Positions 28,387 to 55,663 of a DNA stretch of 64,000 nt are shown here, piece after piece (positions within the stretch are counted from its first letter, which is position 1; each line of letters begins with the position of its first letter). The stretch is from Actinomycetota bacterium (GTDB lineage: Bacteria > Actinomycetota > Actinomycetes > Propionibacteriales > Propionibacteriaceae), in assembly GCA_020161015.1 (NCBI GenBank), contig JAIUOT010000002.1:1-64000 (forward strand). The letters run 5' to 3'. A model generated the notes under the pieces. That model did no database searches, had not been told where the DNA came from, and saw only the letters and a program-made list of their open reading frames with translations. A program made the position numbers and the translations under genes.

Positions 28387-28436
28387 CCGAGTGCAACTCC
28401 CGCTACCGGAATTCCGGTAGCGGGAGTTGCACTCGG
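28387..28436. repeat. 50-bp palindromic repeat, copy 1 (perfect)
   Basis: A perfect 50-bp palindrome centred on GGAATTCC at 28408-28415, flanked by GTTCCTGC on the left and GAGCGCG-type sequence on the right. It lies 39 bases after rhaD and before the convergent isomerase gene, where it could act as a bidirectional terminator. Three related copies lie at 55.1-55.7 kb. Confidence 0.85.
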
Positions 28437-28439
28437 TAG

Positions 28440-28515
28440 CGAGCGCGGGTTGGGGGGCGCTGAGAGCGCGGGGTGGGGGGTGCGGCGAGCGCGGGGTGAG
28501 GAGGGGCGCCGGAGG
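28440..28515. repeat. G-rich imperfect tandem repeat
   Basis: Three imperfect units of about 25 bases built on GAGCGCGGGGTGGGGGG follow the palindrome. Several runs of four to six G could form G-quadruplexes. The remaining bases to 28621 show nothing convincing. Confidence 0.5.
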
Positions 28516-28621
28516 CGGGGGTGGACGGACGAAGCGGGCGGCTCGGAGGATCGCACATCCGAGGCCGCCCGCTGTCCGTCCGCCCATGGACGTCAGGGGC
28601 CGGGCGTGAGCCCGGCGGGGG

Positions 28622-30271
28622 TCAGCCGATCGCGGGGACCACGTCGCCGGCCAGGTGGACCTGGTAGCCCATGGCCTGGAACATGGCCGCCTTGGCGATC
28701 AGGGCCGCGTCGGCACTCGCCGCGTCCGGAGCGTAGGCCACGTTCATGTGGTTGGCCTTGTGGCGGGCCATCAGCTGGTCGCGGTTCACGCCGTGCAGGA
28801 CGGCGTTCATGATCGGCCACTCCGGGTTGGTGGAGTCGAGGCGACGCTGCACCTCGGCCTCGGGCATCTCGATGCAGGTGCCGCGGCCGAGGTCGACGTG
28901 CAGGGCCCCGTCCATGATGAACACCCGCGACCACACGATCTCGCCCGGCTTGGAGACCCCGGCGAGGGTGCCACCGCCCAGCGGGAAGTAGTAGTAGCTC
29001 TGCCGGTAGGAGTGCGCGTTGGCGTACCCGCCGAGGTGGGACGCAGGGACGGAGCCGGAGATCTCCAGCACCCAGACGAAGTCGTCCTCCCAGTCGTCGC
29101 CCCAGCGGACGTCGTGCAGCGTGGTGGCCGGGTCCAGGCCCATGGCCGTCCAGACGCGGTTGGTGACCACGGCGTCGACCGCGACGCCCTCGTCCACCTC
29201 GTTGAAGTGCGGCATCGCCTTGCCGTCGAACAGCACCCGGTCGCCTTCGCGGGAGTAGGCCGGGGGACGCTCGACGTTGTTCAGCAGGCCCTCGGCCAGG
29301 TCGGACGCGGGCACCATGTCCTTCAGGCCCTGCTGGTACTGGATGCCGACGGCGTCGGCGCCGAAGTCGTCCGCGATCCGCAGCGCGGCGATGTACATCT
29401 TGAACTGGCTGGTGAGCTGCGCGTCGGTCAGGCACTCCTTCCAGTCGCCCTCGTTGTCGACGTGGAAGGTCATGCCCTTCTCGTCGAGCCAGGCGCGGAC
29501 GGCGGCGGCCTCGGCGTCGGTGACCTTGTTCATCTCCGCGACCAGGGCGCTCTGGCTGAGCCGCTCCTTGTAGATGCCCGCCGGGTTGAGCAGTTCGTCG
29601 TCGATGATCGCGTTGTACATGCCCATGCAGCCCTCGTCGAAGACGGCGAGGATCGCCTTCTTCGCCTTCAGCTCCGCGGCGAGCGCCTCGCCCAGCCGCT
29701 TCTCCGCGGAGTCGGGCAGCTCGGGCAGGTCGCGCACGTGCGAGGTGTCGTGGACGATGGCGCCGGTGGCCAGCCACTCCTGGAGCTTCGCGGTGAACCA
29801 CTCGTCGGTGAAGTCCTTGCTCCAGATGGTGGAGTGGGCCACGCCGGCCTTGGTGAGGGAGCCGTGCAGGTTCGCCATGCCGACCAGGCCGGGGAAGTCG
29901 CCGGCGAAGTTCGCGGCGAGAAGGATCGGGCCCTCGTGGTCGCGCAGGCCGGCCAGCACGTGGTGGCTGTACTGCCACACGGCCTCGACCACGACGAGCG
30001 GGGCGTCGGCCGGGATGGTGGCGAAGACGTCCATGCCCTTGCGCTGGTTGTCGATGAAGCCGTGGCCCTTGACCGGGTCGACGCCATGGGCGCGGGTGAC
30101 CTTCCACCCGAGGGCGTTGGCCGCAGCAGCGAACTGCGCCTCGACCTGCTGCTGCATGCCCCACGTCTTGACGTTGGTGGTCAGGCGCAGGTCACCGCTG
30201 GCGACGACATACAGGGTGTGGGGTTCGGCCGCCGGCCGCACGGGGATTTCAGGCACGAGGTAGGTGCTCAC
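28622..30271 (-). CDS. L-fucose/L-arabinose isomerase-family sugar isomerase
   Basis: 549 residues resembling the FucI/AraA fold. The N-terminal part has Rossmann-like regions (VVVEAVWQYSHHVLAGL, LLAANFAGDFPGLVGM), followed by AVFDEGCMGMYNAIID (the acidic metal-ligand region expected in this family), QYQQGLKDMVPASDLAEGLLNN and a beta-barrel C-terminal domain (SYYYFPLGGGT, HKANHMNVAYAPD). It should interconvert an aldose and ketose, with L-fucose or D-arabinose the best guess. The GTG at 30271 has AAGGAGT at good spacing. It is monocistronic with its own promoter (30341-30369), whose AATCGATTTC core resembles the fucU operators at 43802. That links it to the fucose-type cluster 8 kb away. Confidence 0.72.
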   Translation of the reverse strand: MSTYLVPEIPVRPAAEPHTLYVVASGDLRLTTNVKTWGMQQQVEAQFAAAANALGWKVTRAHGVDPVKGHGFIDNQRKGMDVFATIPADAPLVVVEAVWQYSHHVLAGLRDHEGPILLAANFAGDFPGLVGMANLHGSLTKAGVAHSTIWSKDFTDEWFTAKLQEWLATGAIVHDTSHVRDLPELPDSAEKRLGEALAAELKAKKAILAVFDEGCMGMYNAIIDDELLNPAGIYKERLSQSALVAEMNKVTDAEAAAVRAWLDEKGMTFHVDNEGDWKECLTDAQLTSQFKMYIAALRIADDFGADAVGIQYQQGLKDMVPASDLAEGLLNNVERPPAYSREGDRVLFDGKAMPHFNEVDEGVAVDAVVTNRVWTAMGLDPATTLHDVRWGDDWEDDFVWVLEISGSVPASHLGGYANAHSYRQSYYYFPLGGGTLAGVSKPGEIVWSRVFIMDGALHVDLGRGTCIEMPEAEVQRRLDSTNPEWPIMNAVLHGVNRDQLMARHKANHMNVAYAPDAASADAALIAKAAMFQAMGYQVHLAGDVVPAIG

Positions 30272-30340
30272 TGTCAGACTCCTTGAGGATTGTCCGTCGC
30301 CCCGCGGGACTTCGTTGAACGTCGGGACGAGCTCCCCTTC

Positions 30341-30369
30341 ATCGTTTCAGCAATCGATTTCAGAGTCAA
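30341..30369 (-). promoter_or_regulatory. Promoter and operators of the FucI-like gene
   Basis: Minus-strand TTGACT (30364-30369) and AACGAT (30341-30346) are 17 bases apart. The spacer holds CTGAAATCGATTGCTG (30348-30363), close to the fucU operator AGAAATCGATTTCT. TGAAACGATGAA across the -10 matches the rhamnose-type site at 10 of 12 positions. Confidence 0.5.
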
Positions 30370-30383
30370 GGCGGATGTGCCAA

Positions 30384-30420
30384 TTCCGCGGTCCGGAGCA
30401 GGGGTCGCCGGACCGCGGAA
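30384..30420 (-). terminator. Terminator-like hairpin after the aldo/keto reductase gene
   Basis: A perfect 13-bp stem (TTCCGCGGTCCGG and complement) with an 11-base loop starts 16 bases after the stop of the minus-strand reductase gene and precedes the FucI-like promoter. There is no clear T-run. Confidence 0.6.
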
Positions 30421-30435
30421 CGCGGCGTTTCGGGG

Positions 30436-31491
30436 CTACTCCGCGGCTGTGCTCCCGTAGCCGGTCCAGCCCGGGATCGTGCCGTCCACGTCCCACAGGT
30501 CGAGCCAGTCGCCCGAGCCCTCCCACAGGAAGACCTGGCCCTTGATCAGGCGGCTGTTGGCCTCCACCGAGCGCAGGTCGTTGAGCATCCGGGGGGTGAG
30601 CGGGTTGGTGGTGATCGCGCGGAGGTTGGACAGGATCTGGGCGGGCTTCACCGAGAAGGGGATCGCGACGTGCCCCCGCTGGGCGGCCCACTTCAGGCAC
30701 ACCTCGGCCGGGTGGACGCCGAGCTCCGCGGCGATCCGCACGACCACCGGGTGCTCCATGTCGGCGACGTCGCCCTCGAACGTGTCGCGCTCGGGCCGGC
30801 GTGGCGAGCCCATCGGGGAGTAGCCGATCACGACCATGCCGTGGTCCTTGCTGAACTGGTACAGCTCGCCCTGCTGGAACGCCGGGTGCAGCTCCATCTC
30901 GTTGATCGCCGGGGCGATCCGGGCGTCCCGCAGCACCAGCCGCAGCTTGGGGATGGTCATGTTCGAAACCCCGAGGTGCCGCACCAGGCCCGCGTCCACG
31001 AGCTCCTCGAGCGCGTGGTACATCGCCATGTACTCGGCGTGGATGTAGGGACGGGACGAGGGGTTGCGCGCGTCCGGCGCGGCGAAGCGCTCGTGGGTGT
31101 TCGGGAACGGCCAGTGGATCAGCAGCGCGTCGAGGTGCTCGAGGCCGAGGTCGGCGAGGCTCTTGTGCACGGAGGCCACGGCGGCAGCCGGGTCGTGGGC
31201 GTCGTTCCAGACCTTCGAGATCACGAACACCTCGTCGCGGGACAGGCCGAGCTCGGCCATCGTGCTCTTCAGCACCGGGCCGATCAGGTGCTCGTTGGCG
31301 TACACCGAGGCGCAGTCGACGAGGCGGTAGCCGGTACGGAGGGCGACGCCGACTGCCTCGGCGATGTCCTCCAGGGAGAAGCGGTCCGAGCCGAACGTCC
31401 CCAGCCCGAGCATGGGGATCGTGGCGCCGCCGGCGAGGGTCAGCCGGGGCACCGTGGTGGGGTCGACGGTGTCGTGGGCGGTGGTGGTCAT
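30436..31491 (-). CDS. Aldo/keto reductase
   Basis: 351 residues, AKR superfamily TIM barrel. The catalytic tetrad is visible: Asp and Tyr in YRLVDCASVYANEHLIG, Lys in VFVISKVWND and His in LLIHWPFPNT, followed by the NADP-binding C-terminal part (IPFSVKPAQILSNL). It reduces or oxidises a sugar or polyol carbonyl. It is the last gene of the FGGY kinase / GatD-like / AKR operon, two bases after the dehydrogenase stop. In the pathway it may interconvert an aldose and a polyol, or clear a reactive aldehyde. The substrate is inferred only from context. Confidence 0.85.
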   Translation of the reverse strand: MTTTAHDTVDPTTVPRLTLAGGATIPMLGLGTFGSDRFSLEDIAEAVGVALRTGYRLVDCASVYANEHLIGPVLKSTMAELGLSRDEVFVISKVWNDAHDPAAAVASVHKSLADLGLEHLDALLIHWPFPNTHERFAAPDARNPSSRPYIHAEYMAMYHALEELVDAGLVRHLGVSNMTIPKLRLVLRDARIAPAINEMELHPAFQQGELYQFSKDHGMVVIGYSPMGSPRRPERDTFEGDVADMEHPVVVRIAAELGVHPAEVCLKWAAQRGHVAIPFSVKPAQILSNLRAITTNPLTPRMLNDLRSVEANSRLIKGQVFLWEGSGDWLDLWDVDGTIPGWTGYGSTAAE

Positions 31492-31493
31492 GG

Positions 31494-32552
31494 TCACTCC
31501 TGGATGGCGGGGGTCGGGTCGAACAGGATCTTCCCCGACACGGCGCCGGGGGTCTCGAAGAGGCGGAAGGCGTCCATCACCTGCGCGAGGTCGAAGACGC
31601 CGTGGACGAGGTCGTCGATGATCCGCAGGCGGCCGTCGGCCACGCACTCTGCGGTCAGCGACCACTCGGTGCCCGGGAACGGCGCGCTGTAGGACATCCA
31701 CGAGCCGGTGAGCGAGAACTCCTTGCGGTTGAGCTGCTCGAACACCGCGTGGTCGAAGGTCAGGTCGGCGTGGCTGTTGCCGATGAAGCACACCCGGGAG
31801 TGGACGCCGGCGGCCTGGAAGGCAAGGGACATGGTGGCGTTCTGGCCGGCGGTCTCGAAGGTGTGGTCGACCCCGCCGGGCTGCCACGCGCGCAGGCGGG
31901 CGAGCAGGTCCGGTTCGCGGGCGTCGAAGGTGGCGTCCGCACCGAGCGCGGTGGCGGTCGCCAGCCGGTCGGGGTTCACGTCGACGACCGCGACGCGGTC
32001 CGCGCCCAGGATGCGCACCCACTGGAGGGTGAACAGCCCGATCGTGCCCGCACCGAGGACGAGGACGCTGCCGCCGCCGCTGAACCCGGCGTGGCGGACA
32101 CCGTGCAGGGCGACGGTGGACGGCTCGAAGAACGCGATGTCGCGGAAGGCGACGCTGTCGGCGACGACCGTCAGGTTGGCCACGGGAGCCACCACGTACT
32201 CGGCGAGCCCGCCGAACTGTCGCGAGCCGATGAAGCTGTAGTTCGGGCACTGGGCGTACTCACCGGCAGCGCAGCGCGGGCACGCGTGGCAGGGGAGCAG
32301 CGGTGCGACCGCGACGCGCCGGCCCACCAGGGTGCCGTCCACACCGTCACCGACCGCGGCGACCTCCCCGGCGATCTCATGGCCGAGCACCATGGGATAG
32401 AAGTGCGCGCCGTCGCTGAGCACGCGGGGGATGTCCGAGCCGCACACCCCCGTCATGCGGACGCGGACCAGGGCTTCGCCCGGTCCCGGTTCCGGGGTGG
32501 GGACGTCCTCCACCCTGACGTCGCGGGGGGCGTGCAGGACCGCTGCTCTCAC
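31494..32552 (-). CDS. GatD-like zinc dehydrogenase (galactitol-1-P 5-dehydrogenase family)
   Basis: 352 residues, medium-chain zinc dehydrogenase. The catalytic zinc region is GVCGSDIPRVLSDGAHFYPMVLGHE, the structural zinc lobe PLLPCHACPRCAAGEYAQCP, then FIGSRQFGGLAEYV, the NAD loop VLGAGTIGLFTLQ and GSWMSYSAPFPGTEW. From memory of E. coli GatD, these stretches line up closely (CGSDLPRI, GAHYYPITLGHE, GSWMNYSSPWPG). It should oxidise a polyol phosphate to a ketose phosphate. The GTG at 32552 overlaps the kinase stop (GTGA) with GGAG eight bases upstream. The partner kinase and the LacC/GatY-like genes divergent from it suggest a tagatose-type route. Confidence 0.82.
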   Translation of the reverse strand: MRAAVLHAPRDVRVEDVPTPEPGPGEALVRVRMTGVCGSDIPRVLSDGAHFYPMVLGHEIAGEVAAVGDGVDGTLVGRRVAVAPLLPCHACPRCAAGEYAQCPNYSFIGSRQFGGLAEYVVAPVANLTVVADSVAFRDIAFFEPSTVALHGVRHAGFSGGGSVLVLGAGTIGLFTLQWVRILGADRVAVVDVNPDRLATATALGADATFDAREPDLLARLRAWQPGGVDHTFETAGQNATMSLAFQAAGVHSRVCFIGNSHADLTFDHAVFEQLNRKEFSLTGSWMSYSAPFPGTEWSLTAECVADGRLRIIDDLVHGVFDLAQVMDAFRLFETPGAVSGKILFDPTPAIQE

Positions 32553-34120
32553 AGTGCGTTCTCCGTTCCGGTTCGGCTGAGGTCGGCGAGCGCGTGCATG
32601 CTGGGCGCGAGCGCCGGGTAGAGGCCGGCGTACACCGCGTACAGCCGGTCGTAGGTGGCCCGGGTGTCCGGGTCGGGGACGTAGCCGGCCGAGCGCTGCA
32701 CCCAGTCGCCCACGAGGTCGTCCACCGTCCCGCCGCCGGTGCCGATGGCGGCCAGCATCGCCGCGCCGAGCGGGGTCGCGTCCGGGTTGGCGGTGACCAC
32801 GACCGGGAGCCCGGTGACGTCGGCCTTGATCTGCATCCACAGTGGGCTGCGGGTGGCGCCGCCGATCGCCAGCAGCTCGGTCACCCCGGCGCCCGCCGCG
32901 AGCGCGACCTCCAGGTTGTGCCGCAGCGCCATGGCGACGCCCTCCATCACCGCCCGGTACAGGTGGCCGCGGCCGGTGCCCAGGTGGAGGCCGACGAACG
33001 CGCCGCGCGCGTCCGCGTCCCACAGCGGGGAGCGCTCGCCGGACAGGTACGGCAGGAAGACGAGGCCCTCGGCGCCGGGGCCCACGGTCGCGGCCAGCGC
33101 GGAGACCTCCTCGTACAGGCCGCGCCCGGAGTGCTCGGACGCCGCCAGCTCGGCCGCGCCGGCCACCCGGGCCAGCCAGGCGAGGCTCGCGGAGCCGGCG
33201 ACCGTCCCGCCCTGGAGCAGCCAGCTGCCCGGCACCACGTGGCGGGAGAGGATCAGCCGTTCGTCGGCCACGGGGGCGTCGAGGGCGATGCTCATGCCGC
33301 CCGCCTGGCCGCCCTGCTCCTGGGTCTGGCCGGGACGGAAGACGCCCGCGCCCAGAGTGCCGCACGCGGCGTCGAGGCCGCCGGCCACCACGGGGGTGCC
33401 GGCCACGAGGCCGGTGGCCCGGGCCACGGCCGGGGTCACTCCGCCCACCACGGCCGTCGGCTCGACGGCCTCCGGCACCCGGGACGGGTCGCAGCCCAGC
33501 GCGGCGGCGAGGGCGTGGTCCACGCCGCCGGTGGCGACGTCGATGAAGTGCCAGCCGTAGCCCTGGGAGTGCTCCTGGCTGGCGACCCCGGTGAGCGCCA
33601 TCACCACCACGCTGTTGCACTGGAGGAACCACCGCGTCCGTGCGAACACGTCGGGACGGTGCCGCTCGAACCACAGCATCTTGGCCGTGGAGTAGCTGGG
33701 GCTGAGGCGGTTGCCGGCGACGCCGAGGATGGTGGCGGCCGGGACGCGGGAGAGCGTCTCGTCGCAGATCGACTGGGCGCGCATGTCCATCCAGATCGGG
33801 GTCCTGGCCAGCACGGCACCTGTCTCGTCCACCGGCACGCAGGCCCAGCTCTGACCGTCCACGCCGATGCCGGCGACGTCCGCCGGGTCGAACGCGCCGG
33901 AGGCGCAGACCTCGGTGATCGTGGCCATCGCGCCGGCGATCCAGTCGTTCGGGTCCTGTTCGACGTGCCCCGGTGCGGGGGTGTGCAGGGGATAGGGACG
34001 GTCGGCGGTCGCGAGCGTGCGACCCGTCCGGTCGACGGCGATCGCGCGAGCGCCGGACGTGCCGATGTCGACCCCGAGGTACACCGGCGCCGACGCGCCG
34101 GTCCGGCTGGTTGCGGCCAC
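32549..34120 (-). CDS. FGGY-family carbohydrate kinase, xylulokinase-like
   Basis: 523 residues. YLGVDIGTSGARAIAVD (phosphate loop), GIGVDGQSWACVPVD, IWMDMRAQSI, VVAGGLDAACGTLGAG, FLPYLSGERSPLWDADARGAFVGL and LLAIGGATRSPLWMQIKAD are the FGGY signatures, closest to the xylulokinase branch. The GTG at 34120 has an unusually strong AAGGAGGAG upstream. It is the first gene of a three-gene operon with a GatD-like dehydrogenase, so its substrate may be a polyol or ketose whose phosphate feeds that enzyme. A LacI operator covers its predicted transcription start. Confidence 0.83.
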   Translation of the reverse strand: MAATSRTGASAPVYLGVDIGTSGARAIAVDRTGRTLATADRPYPLHTPAPGHVEQDPNDWIAGAMATITEVCASGAFDPADVAGIGVDGQSWACVPVDETGAVLARTPIWMDMRAQSICDETLSRVPAATILGVAGNRLSPSYSTAKMLWFERHRPDVFARTRWFLQCNSVVVMALTGVASQEHSQGYGWHFIDVATGGVDHALAAALGCDPSRVPEAVEPTAVVGGVTPAVARATGLVAGTPVVAGGLDAACGTLGAGVFRPGQTQEQGGQAGGMSIALDAPVADERLILSRHVVPGSWLLQGGTVAGSASLAWLARVAGAAELAASEHSGRGLYEEVSALAATVGPGAEGLVFLPYLSGERSPLWDADARGAFVGLHLGTGRGHLYRAVMEGVAMALRHNLEVALAAGAGVTELLAIGGATRSPLWMQIKADVTGLPVVVTANPDATPLGAAMLAAIGTGGGTVDDLVGDWVQRSAGYVPDPDTRATYDRLYAVYAGLYPALAPSMHALADLSRTGTENAL

Positions 34121-34134
34121 CTCTCCTCCTTGAG

Positions 34135-34273
34135 AGCGAAACGTTTTGCTCTGGATCAGGCTAGCTCACCCCGCGACGGGTCCGCAATGGCTGGCGAATC
34201 GTTTCGCCCTTGATCTAGGATGACTTGACAAGCGCGGGGCTCGGTATCAGGCTGGGCATCACGAAACGTTTCG
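34135..34273. promoter_or_regulatory. Divergent promoter region with three LacI operators
   Basis: Three near-palindromes share the core GCGAAACGTTTCGC: AGCGAAACGTTTTGCT (34135-34150), GGCGAATCGTTTCGCC (34193-34208) and CGAAACGTTTCG (34262-34273). Toward the kinase (minus), TTGCGG (34182-34187) and TAGCCT (34158-34163) are 18 bases apart, with the first operator at the start point. Toward the regulator (plus), TTGACA lies at 34225-34230 with a weak -10 near 34248, and the third operator follows. The spacing would suit looping by a tetramer or repression of both sides. Confidence 0.7.
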
Positions 34274-34290
34274 CTGATGGCGGGAGGACC

Positions 34291-35310
34291 GTGGTCGCCA
34301 CCTACAAGGACATCCGGCGCCTGACCGGGCTGTCGCTCGCGACCATCTCGAAGTACTTCAACGGCGGCAACGTCCTCTACGCCAACCGGGTGCTCATCGA
34401 GCAGGCCGCGCGCGACCTCGGCTACCAGGTGAACGACTTCGCGCGCGGCCTGCGCAGCCGCCGCTCCCGGACGCTGGGAGTCGTGCTCGCCGAACTCAAC
34501 TCGACGTTCAACACCACGATCGTCTCCGGCATGGAGGAACGGCTGCGCGAGGCCGGCTACGGCGCGATCATCTGCGACTCCCGTGGCAGCGCGGAGGCGG
34601 AGGCGGAGGCCATCCACTTCCTGATCGGCAAGATGGTGGACGGACTGGTGATCATCCCGGTGGGCGACGAGGTGGCCGGGCTGGACGCCGCCCACGAGCG
34701 CGGCATCCCGGTGATCTCGGTCGACCGCCCGGTGGCCAACGGCCGTGCGGACGCGGTGGTGGTGGACAACCGGGCGGCGATCGCCTCGGCCGTCGACCTG
34801 CTCACCGGCTCCGGACACGGCGAGATCGCCCTGCTCGCGGGGCCCGACACGCTGTTCACCATGCGCGAGCGGCGGATCGGCTTCCGGGCCGCGGTGGAGG
34901 CGGCGACCGGCCGGCTGCCGCGCCGCGAGCTCACGCAGGCGGACGCGGTGAGCATCGAGGGCGGCTACGACGGGATGCGGCGGCTGCTCGAACTGGACCA
35001 CCCGCCGACGGCGGTGGTGTGTGCCAACTACGAGTTCACGCTGGGCGCCACGATGGCCCTCAACGAGCTGGGGGCCGACCTCCCGCGTCCGGCCATCGTC
35101 GGGTTCGACAACCTCGACCTCGCCCGCATCATCCGGCCACGACCGACGCTCGTCGTCCAGCCGGTCGCCGAGATCGCCGCCCGCGCGGCGGAGCTCGTCC
35201 TCTCCCGGATCGAGGGCGAACGCGAGGGGGAGGCCCGCACGGTCGTGCTCCACACGCGGCTCGTCGTCGGAGACCGCGCCACCTTCGCCCTCCCCGGAGC
35301 CGCCTCGTGA
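34291..35310 (+). CDS. LacI-family regulator of the galactitol/tagatose-like genes
   Basis: 339 residues. The helix-turn-helix is TYKDIRRLTGLSLATISKYFNGGNVLY, a less usual sequence (SKYFNGG instead of SRVLNG) that fits a distinct operator class. The ligand domain contains LNSTFNTTIVSGMEERL, ISVDRPVANGRADAVVVDN and IVGFDNLDLARIIRPRPTLVVQP. The GTG at 34291 is the only in-frame start downstream of the third operator. Its GGGAGG is unusually close (three bases), so the start is not certain. The gene overlaps the PfkB-type kinase gene (GTGA). Confidence 0.82.
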   Translation: MVATYKDIRRLTGLSLATISKYFNGGNVLYANRVLIEQAARDLGYQVNDFARGLRSRRSRTLGVVLAELNSTFNTTIVSGMEERLREAGYGAIICDSRGSAEAEAEAIHFLIGKMVDGLVIIPVGDEVAGLDAAHERGIPVISVDRPVANGRADAVVVDNRAAIASAVDLLTGSGHGEIALLAGPDTLFTMRERRIGFRAAVEAATGRLPRRELTQADAVSIEGGYDGMRRLLELDHPPTAVVCANYEFTLGATMALNELGADLPRPAIVGFDNLDLARIIRPRPTLVVQPVAEIAARAAELVLSRIEGEREGEARTVVLHTRLVVGDRATFALPGAAS

Positions 35311-36236
35311 CCGTCCTCACCGTCACCCTGAACGCAGCGATCGACAAGCGCTACGACGTCGGCGCCGTCACGCTGGGACGCGTCCAGCGCGTGGCGCGCG
35401 TGCTGGCCGGCCCGGGCGGCAAGGGGCTCAACGTCGCCCGTGGCGCCCAGCTGTGCGGGCAGCGGGTGCTCGCCTCGGGCTTCGTCGCCGGCTTCGCGGG
35501 CGCGTTCATCACCGACGGGGTCGCTGCGGAGGGGATCGGCGACGAGTTCGTGCGCGTGGCGGGGGAGAGCCGCACCTGCATCAACATCATCGACGCCGCC
35601 GGCACCTCCACCGAGTTCCTCGAACCCGGCGTGACCGTCACCGCCGACGACCTGGCGGCCCTCGAGCGGCGCTTCGCCGGCCTGCTGCCCCAGGTGGACG
35701 TCGTCACCTTGTCCGGCAGCGCCCCTGCCGGCTGCCCGGCCGACGTCTACGTCCCGCTCGTCCGCGCGGCACACGAGGCCGGGCGCCCGGTGCTGCTGGA
35801 CACCAGCGGCGTCCTGCTCGCCGAGGGCCTCCGCGCCGCCCCGACGCTCGCCAAGCCGAACCGCGAGGAGCTGGCGGCACTCGTCGGTGCCGACCTGCCC
35901 GACCTCGACGCCGTCGTGGACGCCGCACGCACGCTGTGCGCGAGCGGCACCGGCACGGTCGTGGTGTCCCTCGGGGAGGAGGGCGCGGTCGCGGTCACCG
36001 CCGACCAGGTGGTGCGGGCCCGCGCTCCGCGGGTGGCCGCGGTCAACCCGGTCGGGTGCGGCGACGTCCTTGTCGGCGGCCTCGCCGCAGGGTTCGCCCG
36101 GCGCCTCGACCTTCCCGACGCCCTCGCCCTCGGCGTCCGCGTGTCCGCAGCCGCGGCCGCGCACCCCGAGACCGGCCGCTTCGACCCCGCCTTCGCCGAC
36201 ACCCTCGAGGTGCCGGTCACCGTCCACAAGAGCTGA
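35307..36236 (+). CDS. PfkB-family sugar-phosphate kinase (tagatose-6-P / fructose-1-P kinase type)
   Basis: 309 residues, LacC/FruK family. TVTLNAAIDKRYDV at the N-terminus, GGKGLNVARGAQLCGQ and the C-terminal anion-hole motif NPVGCGDVLVGG (GxGD with the catalytic Asp) are visible. NPVGxGD resembles LacC tagatose-6-phosphate kinase more than the usual FruK form. It should convert a ketose monophosphate into the 1,6-bisphosphate. The GTG at 35307 overlaps the regulator stop (GTGA). The bisphosphate aldolase gene follows after 13 bases. Confidence 0.83.
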   Translation: MTVLTVTLNAAIDKRYDVGAVTLGRVQRVARVLAGPGGKGLNVARGAQLCGQRVLASGFVAGFAGAFITDGVAAEGIGDEFVRVAGESRTCINIIDAAGTSTEFLEPGVTVTADDLAALERRFAGLLPQVDVVTLSGSAPAGCPADVYVPLVRAAHEAGRPVLLDTSGVLLAEGLRAAPTLAKPNREELAALVGADLPDLDAVVDAARTLCASGTGTVVVSLGEEGAVAVTADQVVRARAPRVAAVNPVGCGDVLVGGLAAGFARRLDLPDALALGVRVSAAAAAHPETGRFDPAFADTLEVPVTVHKS

Positions 36237-36249
36237 ACAGGACCGATCC

Positions 36250-37092: not shown

Positions 37093-37108
37093 GCCGCGGC
37101 GACCGGCC

Positions 37109-39606: not shown

Positions 39607-39629
39607 GACAGCTCCGGTCGCAGGGATGA

Positions 39630-47196: not shown

Positions 47197-47206
47197 GGAG
47201 AGGCAC

Positions 47207-48844
47207 GTGACCCAATTCCCCGCCACCCAGCACGCGATCCAGTTCGTGGGCCCCGACCAGGTGGTGCACAACGAGGCCAAGGCCATGTACCCCCTGGGGC
47301 CGACCCAGGTGCTGCTGAAGTCCGAGGCCTGCGGCATCTGCTTCTCCGACACCAAGCTGCTGCACGCGTTCACCAACCACCCGCGCAAGAGCGAGGTGCT
47401 CAGCGGGCTGGGCGCGGACGAGCTCGCCGGGATCCCCAGCTACCGCCCCGGCGCACAGCCGATCGTCCCGGGCCACGAGCCGGTCGGACGGATCGTCGCC
47501 GTCGGGTCGCAGGTGCGCCACCACCGGGTGGGGGAGCGGGTGCTGGTGCAGACCGACTACCGCCACCTGCCCACGGCCAGCTCGAACGCTGCCTTCGGCT
47601 ACAACTTCGAGGGGGCGCTCCAGGAGTACGTCGTGCTCGACGAGCGCGTGATCATGGACCCGGCCACCGGCGAGCGGTTCCTGATCCCGGTCAGCGAGGG
47701 GCCGTCGGCCTCCGCGGTCGCCCTGATCGAACCGTGGGCCTGCGTCGAGGCGGCCTACGCCTGGGGCGAGCGCTGCCACCTGCGGGACGGCGGCCGGCTG
47801 CTCGTGGTCGCGGACGCCGTCCGTGGCATCGATGACCTGCTGGCGCAGGCCACCCCCTCCTCGATCACCGTGGTCGGCGCGCTCGACGTGCCCGGCGCGG
47901 TCCGCGCAGCGTCCCTGGGTGAGGTGGAGGGCACCTTCGACGACATCGTCTACGCCGGCTCCGATGCCGACGTGGTCGAGGCGCTCGGGCCGAAGCTGGG
48001 CTTCGGCGGCGTGCTCGACGTCGTGCTGTGCGGCGGCGCGTTCTCCCGTCCGGTGAAGATCGACGTCGGACGCGTCCACTACGACCTGATCCGTTACACC
48101 GGGACCGCAGGGGACGACGCGGCGCACGGCTACGCCCGGATCCCCGCGCAGTGCGAACTGCGGGAGGGCGAGCGGATCGCGATCGTCGGGGCCGCGGGTC
48201 CGATGGGCCTGATGCACACCGTCCGCACCGCGGTCAGCGGCGTCCCGGGCATCTCGATGGACGCCGTCGACGTCGACGACGCCCGGCTCGCCCACCTCGC
48301 GGCGGTCGTGGCACCCGTCGCCGAGGCCAACGGCGTCCCCGCGACGTTCCGGAACAGCCGGACCGAGCCGCTGGAACCCGGCTACACCTACATCGCCGCG
48401 ATGGTGCCGGCGCCGTTCCTCATCGCCCAGGCGGTCGACATCGCCACCGAGGGCGCGATCGTCAACGCGTTCGCGGGCTTCGCCATCGGCACGATGGCCG
48501 ATCTCGACCTCACCGCGATCGCCACGAAAGGCATCTACCTGGTGGGGACGTCCGGTTCCCGGATCCAGGACATGAAGACGATGCTGGCGAAGGTGGAGTC
48601 CGGGCAGCTGGACACCAACGTCTCGCTGTGGGCCGTGACCGGCATGGCGGGGGTGGCCGAGGCCATCGAGAGCGTCAACAACCGCACCTCCGGCGGCAAG
48701 ATCATGGTCTACCCGATGCTCCCCGACCTCGGCATGGTGCGCCTGGACGAGCTCGCCGAACGGCTGCCCGCCGTCGCCGCAGCCATGGACGGCACCCGCT
48801 GGACCAACGAGGCCGAGGCGGCCCTGCTGGCCACCGCGTCCTGA
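47207..48844 (+). CDS. Large zinc-type dehydrogenase with two Rossmann-like regions
   Basis: 545 residues, much longer than ordinary medium-chain dehydrogenases (about 350). The catalytic zinc region ACGICFSDTKLLHAFTN (about 41-57) and GHEPVGRIVAVGSQV are clear. The four-Cys structural zinc lobe is missing. A first nucleotide-binding-like half follows (GGRLLVVADAV, ITVVGALDVPGAV, VVLCGGAFSRP), then a second (ERIAIVGAAGPMGLMHTVRTA, about 320). It resembles the sorbose-1-phosphate-reductase-like branch in having an insertion before GHE. The substrate is probably a polyol, ketose phosphate or lactaldehyde derivative. Last gene of the operon, 10 bases after the fusion gene. Confidence 0.72.
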   Translation: MTQFPATQHAIQFVGPDQVVHNEAKAMYPLGPTQVLLKSEACGICFSDTKLLHAFTNHPRKSEVLSGLGADELAGIPSYRPGAQPIVPGHEPVGRIVAVGSQVRHHRVGERVLVQTDYRHLPTASSNAAFGYNFEGALQEYVVLDERVIMDPATGERFLIPVSEGPSASAVALIEPWACVEAAYAWGERCHLRDGGRLLVVADAVRGIDDLLAQATPSSITVVGALDVPGAVRAASLGEVEGTFDDIVYAGSDADVVEALGPKLGFGGVLDVVLCGGAFSRPVKIDVGRVHYDLIRYTGTAGDDAAHGYARIPAQCELREGERIAIVGAAGPMGLMHTVRTAVSGVPGISMDAVDVDDARLAHLAAVVAPVAEANGVPATFRNSRTEPLEPGYTYIAAMVPAPFLIAQAVDIATEGAIVNAFAGFAIGTMADLDLTAIATKGIYLVGTSGSRIQDMKTMLAKVESGQLDTNVSLWAVTGMAGVAEAIESVNNRTSGGKIMVYPMLPDLGMVRLDELAERLPAVAAAMDGTRWTNEAEAALLATAS

Positions 48845-48896
48845 TCCGGCGGGCCGTCCGGCCCGTCGCCTCTGCCCACTCCCTTCGCACGCTCCG

Positions 48897-48928
48897 AGCC
48901 CCTGGCGGTCACCCCACCGCCGGGGGCT
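48897..48928 (+). terminator. Terminator-like hairpin after the dehydrogenase operon
   Basis: A 13-bp stem with one mismatch (AGCCCCTGGCGGT against ACCGCCGGGGGCT) and a six-base loop lies 53 bases after the stop. A shorter hairpin (CGGGCC/GGCCCG) precedes it near 48850. Confidence 0.55.
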
Positions 48929-48976
48929 CGCTGCGTGCGGTCGTCCGGGGGAGTTCGCGCGGCGATCCGAGACGGG

Positions 48977-49006
48977 TTGCAGGGCTGAGCAGTGACCGCT
49001 TATGAT
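48977..49006 (+). promoter_or_regulatory. Promoter of the DeoR/2-oxoacid dehydrogenase operon
   Basis: TTGCAG (48977-48982) and TATGAT (49001-49006) are 18 bases apart. Downstream, ACGAAAGC and TCGAAAGG are short direct repeats of the sort bound by DeoR-family proteins, placed between start point and ribosome-binding site. Confidence 0.6.
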
Positions 49007-49054
49007 TGAATCGGTATAAGGCCTAAAACGAAAGCTAATCGAAAGGACCGGTCG

Positions 49055-49810
49055 ATGGCGATCGAGCGCGGTGAGCGCGAGTCCTCGATCCTGACGCGCC
49101 TTGCCAGGGAGGGATCGGTGACGGTCGCGGGCCTCTCGCGCGACCTGGGGGTGTCCGAGGTCACGATCCGCACCGACCTGCGCAATCTTGAGGACCGCGG
49201 GCTGCTGGCCCGCACCCACGGCGGCGCGGAGGCCACCGGCTACCGCAACGTCCTCGAACGCCAGCTCCAGCACGCCGGGGAGAAGGCCCGCATCGGCGCG
49301 GCGGCCGCCGAACTGGTGGGCGACGACGACCTGATCATGATCGAGGCCGGCACCACCTGCGCGGAGATCGTCAGCCACCTGGGCGCGCGCCGCGGGGTCC
49401 GGATCCTGACCAACTCCACCCTCGTGGTGCGCCACGCACGGCTGTACCCGAACCTCACGGTGGTGCTCACCGGCGGGACGTTCCACCGCACCAGCGAGTC
49501 GATGGTGGGCCCCGTGGCGCTACGCACGATCGAGGACTTCAACGTCCGCCTCGCCTTCTTCGGCACGGACGGCTTCAGCGTGGAGCGGGGGCTCACCACG
49601 GCCTTCTCCGAGGGCGCGGAGGTGATCCGCGCGATGCGGGCCCGCGCCACCGAGTCGTGGCTGGTCGCCGACTCCTCCAAGTACGGCCGGGCCGGTTTCG
49701 TGCGGGTGATGGACCTGCCCGACCTGCACGGCGTGATCACCGACACCCGCCTGGCCGCGTCCGACCAGGCAGAACTCAACAGCAGCGGCGTGCGCGCCCG
49801 CTTCGTCTAG
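49055..49810 (+). CDS. DeoR/GlpR-family transcriptional regulator
   Basis: 251 residues. The N-terminal DeoR helix-turn-helix is ESSILTRLAREGSVTVAGLSRDLGVSEVTIRTDLRNLEDRGLLARTHGGA. The sugar-phosphate-binding domain contains LIMIEAGTTCAEIV, ILTNSTLVV, VVLTGGTFHRTSESMVGP and FFGTDGFS. The ATG at 49055 has GAAAGGA seven bases upstream. The next gene starts 21 bases later, so it is probably the first gene of its own target operon and responds to a phosphorylated sugar. Confidence 0.87.
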   Translation: MAIERGERESSILTRLAREGSVTVAGLSRDLGVSEVTIRTDLRNLEDRGLLARTHGGAEATGYRNVLERQLQHAGEKARIGAAAAELVGDDDLIMIEAGTTCAEIVSHLGARRGVRILTNSTLVVRHARLYPNLTVVLTGGTFHRTSESMVGPVALRTIEDFNVRLAFFGTDGFSVERGLTTAFSEGAEVIRAMRARATESWLVADSSKYGRAGFVRVMDLPDLHGVITDTRLAASDQAELNSSGVRARFV

Positions 49811-49831
49811 AACACGAGGAGAACAACACCC

Positions 49832-51208
49832 ATGGCTCAGGTCGTCGTCATGCCGCAGCTCGGCAACACGGTGGAGTCCTGCCTGGTCACCACCTGGCTG
49901 GTCGGGGTCGGCGACGTCGTCGACGCCTCCACGCTGCTGTGCGAGATCGAGACCGACAAGTCGTCGATGGAGGTGCCCGCCGGCGTGTCCGGGACGGTGC
50001 TCGCGCTCCTCGCCGAGGAGGGCGACGACGTGCCGGTGAAGCAGCCGATCGTCGTGGTCGGCGAGCCGGGCGAGAACGTCGAGGAGTTCCTCGCCGGCGC
50101 CGGCCTGCCGCCCGTCGCGACCGGTGAGGCGGGCGAGGTGTCGACCAGCGATGCGCCGGCGGTGCCGGAGCCCGCGCCCGAGCCGCTCGCCGCAGCGGCG
50201 GCGCCGGTCGCGTCCGCCGGCCCCTCCGGGGCGGTCTCGCCGCGCGCACGGGCCCTCGCGTCCAGCCAGGGGATCGCGGCGGCGGCGCTCGCCGGCACCG
50301 GCCCCCACGGCCGCGTGATCGAGAGGGACGTCCAGGCCGCGATGGCCGCCGGCCCGGGCCTCACGCCCGGTGCCCGCGCCGAGGCCGAGGGTTTCGTTCC
50401 CGGTGCGGCAGGCACCGGCATCGGCGGACGGGTCACCCGCGCCGACCTCGCCGCCCCTGCCGGCGTGGAGGTGTCCGCTGCCCCGGCGGCAGTCGCACCG
50501 GCGGAGTTCCCCGGCGCGTTCACCGACACCCCTCTCAAGGGCATCCGCAAGGTGATCTCCGACCGGATGATGAACTCCCTGGCCACCTCCGCGCAGCTGA
50601 CCTACACCGCCACCGCGCCCGCGGCGGGCCTCCTGGCGCTGCGCGCGCGCCTCAAGGGTGCGGCGGACGCCGAGCTCGCCGCCGTGACCGTGGGCGACCT
50701 GGTCGGCTACGCCGCGGTGCGGACGCTGGCCCGGCACGCCGTGGTGAACGCCCACCTGGAGGACAACACGTTGCGCACCTTCGCCAGCGTGCACCTGGGC
50801 ATGGCGGTCGACACCCCGCGCGGCCTCCTCGTCCCGACGCTGCGGTTCGCCGAGACCCTCACGCTGCGCGACTTCTCGAAGAGGTCCAAGCAGCTCGCGC
50901 TCGACGCGATCGGGGGCTCGATCAGCCCTGACCTGCTCGGCGGGGCGACCTTCACGGTGAGCAACCTCGGCGCCTTCGGCATCGAGTCGTTCACGCCGCT
51001 GCTGAACGTGCCGCAGGTGGCGATCCTGGGCGTGGACGCGATCTTCCCGCGCGCGGTGGTCAACCCCGACGGCACGGTCGGCGCGGAGCAGCGGATCGGG
51101 TTCTCGCTCACCGCGGACCACCGGGTGATCGACGGGGCGGACGCGGCCCGCTACCTCAAGGACCTGTGCGCCGCGTTGGCCGACATCGACCTCACCGTGC
51201 TCGGCTGA
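49832..51208 (+). CDS. 2-oxoacid dehydrogenase E2 (acyltransferase)
   Basis: 458 residues. An N-terminal lipoyl domain (1-80) has the lipoylated Lys43 in EIETDKSSMEVP. After a Pro/Ala linker comes an E3-binding module (about 136-170, SPRARALASSQGIAAAALAGTGPHGRVIERD). A second similar stretch follows (about 178-206, TPGARAEAEGFVPGAAGTGIGGRVTRAD). The catalytic domain (about 230-458) ends with ADHRVIDGADAARYLKDL, containing the active-site His. It transfers the acyl group to CoA. GAGGAG upstream of the ATG. Substrate (pyruvate, acetoin or a branched 2-oxoacid) is not resolved by sequence alone. Confidence 0.87.
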   Translation: MAQVVVMPQLGNTVESCLVTTWLVGVGDVVDASTLLCEIETDKSSMEVPAGVSGTVLALLAEEGDDVPVKQPIVVVGEPGENVEEFLAGAGLPPVATGEAGEVSTSDAPAVPEPAPEPLAAAAAPVASAGPSGAVSPRARALASSQGIAAAALAGTGPHGRVIERDVQAAMAAGPGLTPGARAEAEGFVPGAAGTGIGGRVTRADLAAPAGVEVSAAPAAVAPAEFPGAFTDTPLKGIRKVISDRMMNSLATSAQLTYTATAPAAGLLALRARLKGAADAELAAVTVGDLVGYAAVRTLARHAVVNAHLEDNTLRTFASVHLGMAVDTPRGLLVPTLRFAETLTLRDFSKRSKQLALDAIGGSISPDLLGGATFTVSNLGAFGIESFTPLLNVPQVAILGVDAIFPRAVVNPDGTVGAEQRIGFSLTADHRVIDGADAARYLKDLCAALADIDLTVLG

Positions 51209-51232
51209 ACGCCCTGACAAGGAAAGACACTG

Positions 51233-52606
51233 ATGGCTGACTATGACGTGATCGTCCTCGGCGGCGGTCCCGGTGGCTACATCGCCGCCGAGAGGCTGGG
51301 CCACGAGGGCCGGAAGGTGCTGCTGCTCGAGAAGGAGTCCCTGGGCGGCACCTGCCTGAACGTGGGCTGCATCCCGACCAAGAGCCTGCTGAACTCCGCG
51401 AAGCTGTACGAGCACGCCCGGCACTCCGCCACGTACGGGGTGACCGCAACCGACGTCACCTACGACTGGCCGACCGTCCAGGCGTGGAAGGCGGACGTCG
51501 TCGGCAAGCTGGTCGCCGGCGTCGGCGCCGCGGAGAAGCGTGCCGGGGTCGAGGTCGTGCGGGCCCACGGGACCTTCCTCGCGCCCGGCGTGGTGGAGGT
51601 CGAGGGCGTGCGCCGCACGTCCGACCACGTGATCCTGGCCACCGGCTCTGTACCGGTGATGCCGCCCATCCCGGGGGCCAAGGACAACCCGCTGGTGGTC
51701 GACTCGACCGGGCTGCTCGGCGTCGATGCTGTGCCCAGGCGGCTGGCGGTCATCGGCGGTGGCGTGATCGGCGTCGAGTTCGCCTCCCTCTTCGCGGCCT
51801 TCGGCTCCCACGTCGAGGTGATCGAGATGCTGCCCGAGATCGTCCCGTTCATGGACGACGACCTCGCCGGGCGCCTGCGGAAGGCCCTCTCCGGCGTCAC
51901 CTTCCACCTCGGCTGCCGGGTGACCGCCATCGAGGGCGGGACGGTGGTCTACACCGACGCCAAGGGCGTCGAGCAGCGCTCCGAGGCCGACCTCGTGCTG
52001 ATGGCCGTCGGGCGGCGTCCGCTCGTGGACGGCTGGGGCGCCACCGAGGCAGGCCTCGAGGTCGGGCCCCGCGGCGTCGTCGTCGACGACACCATGCGGA
52101 CGAACCTCCCTCGCACCTGGGCGGTCGGCGACCTGACCGGACGCAGCCTGCTCGCCCACGCCGCGTACCGGATGGGCGAGATCGCCGCCGCGCACATCAT
52201 CGACCCGGTGGCCGCCGGGCGGGCGGGCCAGCGCCTGCGCACCGACACCATCCCGTGGGCGGTCTACTCGATGCCCGAGGCCGCCGGCGTCGGCCTCACC
52301 GAGGCCCAGGCGCGGACGCGCGGCCACGACGTCCTCACCGCGACCGTGCCGCTGGCGGTGTCCGGGCGCTTCGTCGCCGAGAACGGCGTGCGCGGACCGG
52401 GGGCGGTCAAGCTCATCGCCGACCGGCGCACGCGCGCGGTACTCGGCGTCCACATGCTCGGCACGTACGCGCCCGAGACGATCTGGGGCGCGGCGACCGT
52501 GCTCGAGACCGAGCTCACCGTCGACGACCTGCGCCAGGTCGTGTTCCCCCACCCGACCGTCTCCGAGGGCATCCGCGAAGCCGCGTGGGCCATCAAGAAC
52601 GACTGA
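51233..52606 (+). CDS. lpdA: Dihydrolipoyl dehydrogenase (E3)
   Basis: 457 residues. FAD motif [18 protein letters not shown], redox disulphide Cys41/Cys46 in [16 protein letters not shown] motif [21 protein letters not shown] and C-terminal base [13 protein letters not shown] are all intact. It reoxidises the lipoyl group of E2 with NAD. AAGGAAAG precedes the ATG at 51233, 24 bases after E2, so this copy is dedicated to the complex encoded here. Confidence 0.92.
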
Positions 52607-52626
52607 AGAAACGACAGAAGGAAGAC

Positions 52627-55083
<2,457 letters not shown>

Positions 55084-55108
55084 CCGCCACCCCATCCGGC
55101 TCCTGCCC

Positions 55109-55158
55109 CCGAACGCAACTGTTGCCCCCGGAACTCCGGGGGCAACAGTTGCGGTCGG
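55109..55158. repeat. 50-bp palindromic repeat, copy 2
   Basis: Same size and architecture as the copy at 28387, with two mismatched pairs of 25 and a different inner sequence (GTTGCCCCCGGA arm). It lies 26 bases after the E1 stop and could terminate that operon. The arms share the CCGA...CGCAACT frame with the other copies. Confidence 0.75.
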
Positions 55159-55335
55159 CAGCGAACGGAGGACGGGGCGGGCCAGGCGACGGGCCATCGG
55201 CCGCGTGCCGCCCGCCGTCCGTCTGGCCCGCCGGACTGTTCGACCCAGCCCGCCGTCCAGGCCCCAACCCACCGCCACACCGGCACGACCCGGCGGGTCG
55301 ACCCCGTCCGTCCGCCTCCCGGCCCGTTCCTGCTG

Positions 55336-55385
55336 CCGAGTGCAGCTCCTGCTCCCGGAATTCCGGTAGCAGGAGTTGCGCTCGG
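55336..55385. repeat. 50-bp palindromic repeat, copy 3
   Basis: Centred on GGAATTCC; three of 25 pairs are mismatched. Preceded by GGCCCGTTCCTGCT and followed by GGGGCACGAACG, so the symmetry extends imperfectly beyond the 50-bp core. The segment 55159-55335 between copies 2 and 3 holds no gene I can support. Confidence 0.75.
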
Positions 55386-55501
55386 GGGCACGAACGGGGG
55401 GACGGGCCGGTGGCGCGCCCACCGTCGGGGTGTCCGCCGCCTGTGTGGGGCCGCCCATCCGTGAATCGCCTGTGGGTGTCTGTCACCACTCCGTCCGCCG
55501 G

Positions 55502-55553
55502 GTCGATGGTCGCCGCCCCAGCCATCCGCCCGTCGATGGTCGCCGCCCCAGCC
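55502..55553. repeat. 22-bp direct repeat, two copies
   Basis: A 22-base unit beginning GTCGATGGTCGCCGCC occurs at 55502-55523 and 55532-55553 (30-base period) between palindrome copies 3 and 4. The rest of 55386-55613 shows nothing else convincing. Confidence 0.7.
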
Positions 55554-55613
55554 CGCCGCTCCGGCGTGACCAGCGGGTCCGACCCCGTCCGGCCTCCTGG
55601 CCTGTTCCTGCTA

Positions 55614-55663
55614 CCGAGTGCAACTCGTGCTGCCGGAATTCCGGCAGCAGGAGTTGCACTCGG
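55614..55663. repeat. 50-bp palindromic repeat, copy 4
   Basis: Centred on GGAATTCC with one mismatched pair of 25. The preceding 50-60 bases (CCGACCCCGTCCG, CCTGGCC, GTTCCTGCT) resemble those in front of copy 3, so copies 3 and 4 look like duplicates of a longer unit. 55664-55796 holds no other feature than the ribosome-binding site of the next gene. Confidence 0.8.

What the first reader, a model, noticed from the sequence alone, without database searches (positions are those of the whole stretch)
28387..55663. Family of 50-bp palindromic repeats with an EcoRI-like core, four copies
Seen directly: a perfect 50-bp palindrome at 28387-28436 and related copies at 55109-55158, 55336-55385 and 55614-55663 (2, 3 and 1 mismatched pairs of 25). 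All are exactly 50 bp, have CCGA/TCGG outer ends and a CGGAA/TTCCG or near-identical core, and sit in flanks like GTTCCTGC...GAACG that extend the symmetry. Mismatches are sometimes compensated: copy 2 has a largely different arm sequence that still pairs with itself, which indicates selection or a copying mechanism that preserves pairing. All lie just beyond gene ends. They could be bidirectional terminators, REP/BIME-like elements mobilised by a RAYT-type transposase elsewhere, or protein-binding sites. Fully palindromic 50-mers without a loop are unusual for plain terminators.
Basis: partly seen in the sequence, partly recalled or inferred. Interest (0 to 1): 0.72.

Follow-up and report, generated by a model that had tools for sequence, protein, structure and literature searches.

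The report
Dispersed palindromes with a partner nuclease
The 50-base palindromes are scattered copies of a DNA element whose copies also sit on both sides of a gene for a probable DNA-cutting protein, a pairing that recurs in related bacteria with different sequences and looks like a self-copying DNA system.

Summary
The window lies in a Propionicimonas-like actinobacterium with at least 68 copies. The unit is a 58-bp palindrome: GCnnCCGA-N11-GCnnCCGR-N4 plus mirror image, i.e. four boxes, 19 bp apart within each arm. The N11 arms differ between species yet mostly still pair. Copies sit mostly behind gene ends. This genome has no RAYT/Y1 gene; in relatives 0 of 21 Y1 loci show this skeleton. 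Instead two copies flank one gene (G000:C17:32582-33481) for an AbiEi-like protein with an inferred C-terminal PD-(D/E)XK nuclease. All 15 close homologues in the genus have a palindrome beside them (12 on both sides), and all 11 species with detected elements carry the gene (one only a fragment). G012 has three genes, each flanked by its own palindrome type. Outside the genus 21 of 40 homologues are flanked on both sides (0 of 47 window genes; 1 of 39 for distant windows in the same loci), mostly with other sequences but the same lag-19 geometry. Best reading: the palindromes are the dispersed cognate sites of this nuclease, working like REP/RAYT with an unrelated enzyme. The pairing is well supported; binding, cutting and copying are inferred.

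The parts
28383..28440 (.). 58-bp element, copy 1 (the perfect 50-mer is 28387-28436): box GCCCCCGA, arm N11, box GCTACCGG, AATT, and mirror image (outer right box TCGGTAGC)
28366..28457 (.). extended inverted repeat around copy 1 (83% complementary arms of 46 nt); 28367-28456 folds as one hairpin as RNA (-80.5 kcal/mol, z -14.3)
55105..55162 (.). 58-bp element, copy 2 (50-mer 55109-55158, 23 of 25 pairs), arms of different sequence
55332..55389 (.). 58-bp element, copy 3 (50-mer 55336-55385, 22 of 25 pairs)
55610..55667 (.). 58-bp element, copy 4 (50-mer 55614-55663, 24 of 25 pairs)
27521..28348 (+). gene ending 38 bp before copy 1 (class II aldolase family)
28622..30271 (-). gene converging on copy 1 (fucose-isomerase-like, just under Pfam's cut-off)
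52627..55083 (+). gene ending 25 bp before the three-copy cluster (2-oxoacid dehydrogenase E1-like)
55773..56945 (+). gene after the cluster (glycerate kinase family)

Best explanation
The palindromes are dispersed copies of the cognate DNA site of a chromosomal AbiEi-like protein with an inferred C-terminal PD-(D/E)XK nuclease domain, whose own gene lies between two copies. Shown: the pairing of gene and palindrome, its recurrence with different sequences, the fixed four-box geometry, and matching of gene flanks and dispersed copies inside genomes. Inferred: the protein binds one arm per monomer across the dyad, as published AbiEi proteins bind paired 23-bp inverted repeats. It then cuts or nicks the site, and repair from another copy both keeps arms alike within a species (concerted evolution) and occasionally seeds new copies. 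Copies survive mostly behind gene ends, where a long hairpin does little harm or may serve as a 3' end or terminator. It works like REP/RAYT, but is not a member.
For: At least 68 places in G000 (136 strand hits among 150 scored candidates). All 11 genus species with R1 hits have a close homologue (G027 only a fragment), against 1 of 19 without, and that one, G019, has a variant palindrome (Fisher 2e-7, not corrected for kinship). 15 of 15 close homologues have a palindrome within 400 bp, 12 on both sides; G000's gene is flanked by C17:32364 and C17:33582. In G012 the third gene proved to be flanked by the arm type of a set of its dispersed copies. 81 of 132 dispersed copies fit their own genome's gene-flank arms strictly best; null mean 11.2, maximum 72, 0 of 1000 reach it. 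Outside the genus 21 of 40 are flanked on both sides, against 0 of 47 window genes; in the same loci, windows 570-1000 bp away give 7 of 78 and gene-end windows 50 of 78. Lag-19 repeat in arms: 0.55 outside the genus, 0.24-0.35 at other lags. G032, another genus, has 9 places of its own family. D223, E234, D236, K240 invariant in 49. Published AbiEi binds two 23-bp inverted repeats 3 bp apart (PMC7319586, passages).
Against: No binding, cleavage or movement is shown. The nuclease fold rests on a residue pattern, weak Pfam hits (DUF559 in 1 and MTES_1575 in 2 of 49 members) and a low-confidence model (pLDDT 56; no Foldseek hit at E<=0.001; a second model was worse). G000's own dispersed copies fit its gene flanks strictly best in only 23 of 63 (7 ties), G001's in 2 of 7 (1 tie), because G015 and G002 have nearly the same arms. 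11 of 40 outside homologues show no palindrome at the threshold, and the 40 were not a random draw. No target duplication or clean empty site was found. The gene often sits at one ancestral place beside ilvC, so it is not itself seen to jump.
Confidence: 0.66

Rival explanations
1. Regulatory reading: the AbiEi-like protein is a regulator, the flanking palindromes are its operators, and the dispersed palindromes are further binding sites (a regulon or a nucleoid-type architecture protein); no copying activity.
For: AbiEi proteins bind inverted repeats and autoregulate (PMC7319586, passages); strong base-specific conservation at the boxes.
Against: Sites also follow the gene at its 3' side and otherwise lie mostly downstream of genes, with promoter-only (divergent) gaps depleted, 4 of 43 loci against 41 of 88 gaps. 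Invariant nuclease-type residues. Species-wide turnover of arm sequence at tens of loci suggests a copying process.
Confidence: 0.15
2. Bidirectional transcription terminators or 3'-end stabilisers shared out by recombination; the nuclease gene merely happens to be insulated by two of them.
For: Long stable hairpin; 39 of 43 loci adjoin a gene 3' end, 16 of them convergent.
Against: Only 43 intergenic loci in the fetched set; no T-run at 54900-55900; no clear sense-strand wobble bias, 50 G.T against 35 A.C; 12 of 15 and 21 of 40 homologues flanked on both sides against 0 of 47 window genes.
Confidence: 0.12
3. Classic REP/REPIN elements mobilised by a RAYT now lost from this genome.
For: Copy number, extragenic position and clusters of 2-3 are REP-like; Y1 genes are commoner in element-bearing species, 9 of 11 against 5 of 19 (Fisher 0.007).
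Against: None of 21 fetched Y1 loci has the skeleton; 7 carry another palindrome. G000 and G026 have copies but no Y1 match.
Confidence: 0.04

Closest known systems
REP elements with RAYT (REPtrons)
   Same: High-copy extragenic palindromes; one gene flanked by two copies; repeat and enzyme match within a genome; pairing kept while sequence changes (PMC2817692, passages; PMC3733652, abstract and passages).
   Different: Protein is AbiEi-like with an inferred PD-(D/E)XK domain, not HUH/Y1; unit is a 58-bp near-perfect palindrome of four boxes 19 bp apart, not a 20-40 nt tagged hairpin; no constant GTAG tag.
CGTC-tagged REPs
   Same: Dispersed palindromes without a RAYT (PMC3733652, abstract and passages).
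   Different: Shorter and tagged; described as lacking a dedicated transposase, whereas here a partner gene is found.
AbiEi antitoxins (type IV toxin-antitoxin) and Rv2827c
   Same: N-terminal two thirds match AbiEi profiles (best 1e-12; AbiEi_4 in 25 of 49); published AbiEi binds two 23-bp inverted repeats 3 bp apart (passages).
   Different: C-terminal part has an invariant D..E.DG..K pattern; sites lie on both sides of the gene and are dispersed in tens of copies.
TIRYT elements (RAYT-like genes with terminal repeats, some sharing GGGGWSAS)
   Same: Seemingly present in the same genus: Y1 genes with nearby palindromes of the AAAGGGGAC kind (PMC3733652 passages).
   Different: Other enzyme and other palindrome; a separate system in these genomes.

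Membership tests
REP/RAYT (REPtron) | Y1/HUH transposase gene flanked by two copies of the repeat | tested here: not met
   No PF01797 in G000; 0 of 21 Y1 loci in the genus near the skeleton
REP/RAYT (REPtron) | GTAG (or GT(A/G)G-type) tag at one end of a 20-40 nt hairpin | tested here: not met
   58-bp symmetric unit; the nn between the box and GC varies by species, so the corresponding tetranucleotide varies too
REP/RAYT (REPtron) | High-copy, extragenic, mostly downstream of genes | tested here: met
   At least 68 places; 39 of 43 loci adjoin a 3' end by my gene calls
Intrinsic terminator | GC-rich hairpin followed by a T-run | tested here: not met
   Hairpin yes, no T-run site at 54900-55900 (that stretch only)
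AbiE type IV toxin-antitoxin | AbiEi-like DNA-binding protein | tested here: met
   Best PADLOC AbiEi matches 4e-10, 2e-9 and 1e-12 for three members; Pfam AbiEi_4 at E<=0.01 in 25 of 49
AbiE type IV toxin-antitoxin | AbiEii nucleotidyltransferase toxin gene next to it | not tested
   Neighbours were not searched for AbiEii
PD-(D/E)XK nucleases (DUF559/MTES_1575-like) | D ... E-x-K type active site in an alpha-beta-beta-beta-alpha-beta core | tested here: inconclusive
   D223, E234, D236, G237, K240 invariant in 49; weak Pfam hits, DUF559 in 1 and MTES_1575 in 2 members; models too weak
MITE / TIR transposon | Target-site duplication and clean empty sites | not tested
   Intergenic regions of relatives looked too diverged to define edges
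Rfam RNA families | Match to a described RNA family | tested here: not met
   Only a tRNA in the window at gathering thresholds

The most novel reading that the evidence does not exclude
A previously undescribed class of selfish or domesticated DNA element: four-box palindromes spread and homogenised by AbiEi-like PD-(D/E)XK nucleases through cut-and-convert (homing-like) copying. Each nuclease lineage co-evolves with its own palindrome, over much of the order Propionibacteriales, with several such pairs per genome. It would be a REP/RAYT analogue that evolved from an antitoxin-type DNA-binding protein.
Probability: 0.45. Interest if true: 0.92.

Novelty: categorically new. Interest (0 to 1): 0.82.

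Why it matters
How REP-like palindromes without a RAYT spread is open (CGTC REPs are said to lack a dedicated transposase, PMC3733652, abstract). Here a palindrome family has a partner gene of a wholly different protein class, recognised by geometry rather than sequence. If copying is confirmed, it adds a new way for non-coding palindromes to colonise genomes, gives a role to a common protein family that Pfam and NCBIfam name poorly (325 of 391 Propionibacteriales genomes have a homologue at E<=1e-10, though many may be generic AbiEi-like proteins), and supplies natural protein/site pairs of differing specificity.

Tried and rejected
RAYT as mobiliser: rejected. DUF559 (PF04480) as a direct search handle: no hit in G000, so I searched with an alignment of the proteins. 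Strand-specific RNA function: G.T against A.C mismatches in tandem loci 50 against 35, not convincing. Phage, viral or plasmid origin: skeleton absent from viral contigs, no viral relative confirmed, no phage hit, one partial plasmid hit. Solved-structure relatives by sequence: none credible. Structure models: pLDDT 56 and 48, used only for the order of strands and helices. Skeleton matches in two Sphingomonas records have 3 of 11 arm pairs and look like chance; Pseudoclavibacter 6 of 11 is unclear; Pseudarthrobacter 10 of 11. The 120-bp perfect palindrome in G001:C427 sits at the exact centre of its contig and is probably a fold-back assembly artefact. Tier-3 homologues (about 46-114 bits): 0 of 9 tested are flanked on both sides.
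Full report
WHAT IS THERE. The four 50-mers are real and at the stated places: 25, 23, 22 and 24 of 25 pairs, the only centres in the window with 21 or more (0 in 20 Markov copies). The half-site pattern gives 8 hits in the window and none in 100 shuffles. The window's genome (G000, 3.67 Mb, 65 contigs, 96% complete) gives 136 strand hits with a covariance model of the element, i.e. 68 places; only 150 candidates were scored, so this is a lower bound. I fetched 65 of these 68: 33 have 21 or more of 25 pairs, 12 are perfect; single copies (27, mean 23.0 pairs) are more perfect than those within 700 bp of another (38, mean 19.9). Members of a cluster are mostly 150-330 bp apart.

ANATOMY. Within G000, positions are either near-invariant or freely variable: CCGA, GCAAC, C, GC and CCGGAATTCCGG are kept, while the positions between vary; GC at the next step outward is also kept. 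Pairing is above shuffles overall (88.8% of cells against 86.4%, 88 two-sided changes against 58.9, 0 of 500; but the number of pairs with a two-sided change is not unusual, 112 of 500 shuffles reach it), and the conserved bases dominate. In the outer flank, positions -4, -5, -7 and -8 pair less often than composition predicts. Across the genus the picture sharpens: the constant skeleton is GCnnCCGA-N11-GCnnCCGR-N4-YCGGnnGC-N11-TCGGnnGC, 58 bp, and the N11 arms differ between species but mostly stay self-complementary. In the 80 loci listed there I counted 86 matches, of which 32 have 11 of 11 arm pairs and 55 have 8 or more (the other 17 loci were not in this count). Of the 80 listed, all but four (Pseudarthrobacter, Pseudoclavibacter, two Sphingomonas) are titled as Propionicimonas, Propionibacterium, Propionibacteriaceae, Propionibacteriales or unclassified actinobacterial MAGs, and contig lengths tie several to genus handles; this places the window there.

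CONTEXT. With my own codon-usage gene caller, the 65 fetched copies fall into 43 intergenic loci: 16 convergent, 23 tandem, 4 divergent, against 3, 44 and 41 of 88 element-free gaps of 90 bp or more in the same DNA (Fisher 1e-5 for depletion of divergent gaps). The four divergent cases were not checked by hand, and at two loci (C21, C54) a called frame overlaps the element. At two loci compared with relatives, the 3' gap of the same gene holds this element with other arms in G012 (first locus) and G002 (second), and other palindromes or short hairpins in other species: these gaps turn over fast.

THE PARTNER GENE. In three species two copies 1.1 kb apart enclose one gene. tblastn showed the same in G000: gene C17:32582-33481 between palindromes C17:32364 and C17:33582. 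The protein, about 305 aa, matches AbiEi profiles in its N-terminal two thirds (best PADLOC E-values 4e-10, 2e-9 and 1e-12 for three members) and carries an invariant S..ES..R, D, E.DG..KY, E..R pattern in its C-terminal third (49 homologues). That pattern, one weak DUF559 and two weak MTES_1575 hits among 49 members and the predicted strand/helix order (pLDDT 56) point to a PD-(D/E)XK nuclease; Foldseek gave nothing significant. The fold is therefore an inference.

CO-OCCURRENCE. Over 30 genus genomes, 11 have R1 matches. All 11 have a close homologue of at least 330 bits, except that G027 has only a C-terminal fragment beside an N-run. Of the 19 without R1 matches one does, G019, whose gene is flanked by a variant palindrome (GCTCCCAA box) that R1 had not reported. 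Fisher 2e-7, not corrected for kinship. The R1 search scored at most 145-150 candidates a genome, so zeros are not absolute.

FLANKING. All 15 close homologues (330 bits or more) were examined: 15 have a palindrome of 17 or more of 25 pairs within 400 bp, 12 on both sides. Counting only the skeleton, both sides are found in 12 as well (and L146 for G028, whose 5' hit is not the skeleton). Of 12 second-tier homologues (220-270 bits) I tested 11, leaving out G003:C333, which starts at a contig end: 9 have a palindrome, 6 on both sides; in seven of them the palindromes follow the same plan with other sequences. Of third-tier homologues 0 of 9 tested have both. Outside the genus I fetched 40 homologues that I picked from the places listed (mostly the highest scoring, not a random draw): 21 have both, 29 at least one. 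Controls: 0 of 47 window genes have both (4 have the 5' side, 11 the 3' side); of 247 genes in the G000 loci, biased towards elements, the only one with both is the C17 gene itself. In 39 of the 40 outside loci (one too short), gene-end windows reach 17 pairs in 50 of 78 cases, same-size windows 570-1000 bp away in 7 of 78 (both sides in 1 of 39), mid-gene windows in 1 of 39, and Markov copies of the flanks in 8 of 390 (both in 0 of 195). In flanked loci palindrome centres lie mostly about 110-230 bp before and 25-220 bp behind the matched frame.

GEOMETRY WITHOUT SEQUENCE. In palindromes flanking the outside homologues, whose sequences mostly differ from the window's, the one lag at which an arm strongly repeats itself is 19 bp: 0.55 identity against 0.24-0.35 at other lags (49 palindromes); second tier 0.51 against 0.23-0.36 (15), close homologues 0.71 against 0.21-0.41 (27) (some non-cognate palindromes are included). 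The shared feature is therefore a direct box repeat at 19 bp inside each arm plus dyad symmetry. The second palindrome family of the window (25475, 25494, 25513, 25532; box CGAGGGCCAGC, ++--, 19 bp apart) has the same plan and resembles the palindromes beside G000's homologue at C56.

MATCHING INSIDE GENOMES. Dispersed copies of G012 fall mainly into two arm types. One type flanks its gene C13; I expected the other (agttgacaaac; not written down beforehand) beside its third gene, C1:192766, and found it on both sides. Its gene C34 has a third type on both sides, to which only 1 of 26 dispersed copies comes closest, weakly. Of 132 dispersed copies from 8 genomes, 81 fit a gene-flank arm of their own genome strictly best among 11 genomes and 9 tie; shuffled labels give a mean of 11.2 and a maximum of 72 in 1000. 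Dropped before that count: 40 matches (29 from records without a mapped gene, 10 that are gene flanks themselves, 1 fold-back contig). Against the reading: G000 alone scores 23 of 63 with 7 ties and G001 2 of 7 with 1 tie, because G015 and G002 respectively have nearly the same arms. Protein and arm similarity correlate (Mantel r 0.34, p 0.009, 13 of 15 genes), as expected from co-descent as well as from co-evolution.

ANCESTRAL LOCUS, CHANGING PALINDROMES. A close homologue lies directly behind ilvC in nine of the genus genomes, and a homologue in another genus (G138, L329) is at the same place. So the gene is at least partly inherited in place while its palindromes changed sequence on both sides and at tens of dispersed places. 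That pattern suggests a copying or conversion process. G032, of another genus, has 9 palindromic places of its own family (paired strand matches), two of them beside its gene, against 0-5 scattered strand matches in each of the 12 other genomes searched and 1 for the reversed control pattern in G032.

HOW IT MAY WORK. Shown: dispersed copies, pairing of gene and palindrome, geometry, matching. Established elsewhere: AbiEi binds two 23-bp inverted repeats 3 bp apart as two monomers, and Rv2827c binds four such repeats (PMC7319586, passages); [quoted passage not shown] Inferred: one protein per arm, cutting near the dyad, and repair from another copy. This would explain homogenised arms, preserved pairing and seeding of new copies.

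LITERATURE. Seven searches of the open library listed no paper whose title or abstract start describes such a pairing; I saw the listings, and read the abstract or passages of three papers only. CGTC REPs are stated to lack a dedicated transposase (PMC3733652, abstract and passages). Subscription papers were not searched, so prior description cannot be excluded.

VERDICT. A known anatomical plan (a gene between two copies of a dispersed palindrome) realised by an unrelated protein class and an unrelated, geometry-defined repeat. I rate it categorically new as a molecular system while noting that it works like a REPtron; a reader who counts by anatomy alone would call it a new variant.

Noticed in passing
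window 25475-25542: Second palindrome family: box CGAGGGCCAGC four times at exact 19-bp steps (two forward, two reverse); its likely cognate gene is G000:C56:55905-56717.
   Followed up: partly
L309 (G000:C23:49005-49883): Another AbiEi-like/nuclease homologue in the same genome, with its own palindrome (GCTACGCG / GCTGCGCG boxes) on both sides; no clear dispersed copies in the fetched DNA.
   Followed up: partly
L097 / L211 (G001:C427, 25764 bp): The contig looks like an inverted duplication centred on a palindrome, probably a fold-back assembly artefact; long palindromes may cause more such errors in MAGs.
   Followed up: no
L258, L259, L263, L265, L269, L272, L274 (Y1_Tnp genes): These Y1 transposase genes have nearby palindromes of the AAAGGGGAC..GTCCCCTTT / GGAACCGTCCCC kind, like published TIRYT repeats (GGGGWSAS).
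   Followed up: partly
G000 copies: Clustered copies are less perfect palindromes than single ones (mean 19.9 against 23.0 of 25 pairs), and copies of one cluster often share the same unequal arms.
   Followed up: partly
L151 4229-4286 (Pseudarthrobacter sp. GA104): A skeleton palindrome with 10 of 11 arm pairs outside Propionibacteriaceae; tblastn with three of the partner proteins found none in the 8 kb around it.
   Followed up: partly
L281 centre 2660, L283 centre 2642, L284 centre 1271, L312 and L313 on the 5' side: A further palindrome (GGCCGCCGG / GCCGGCGTC type) just outside the 5' palindrome of several genes; role unknown.
   Followed up: no
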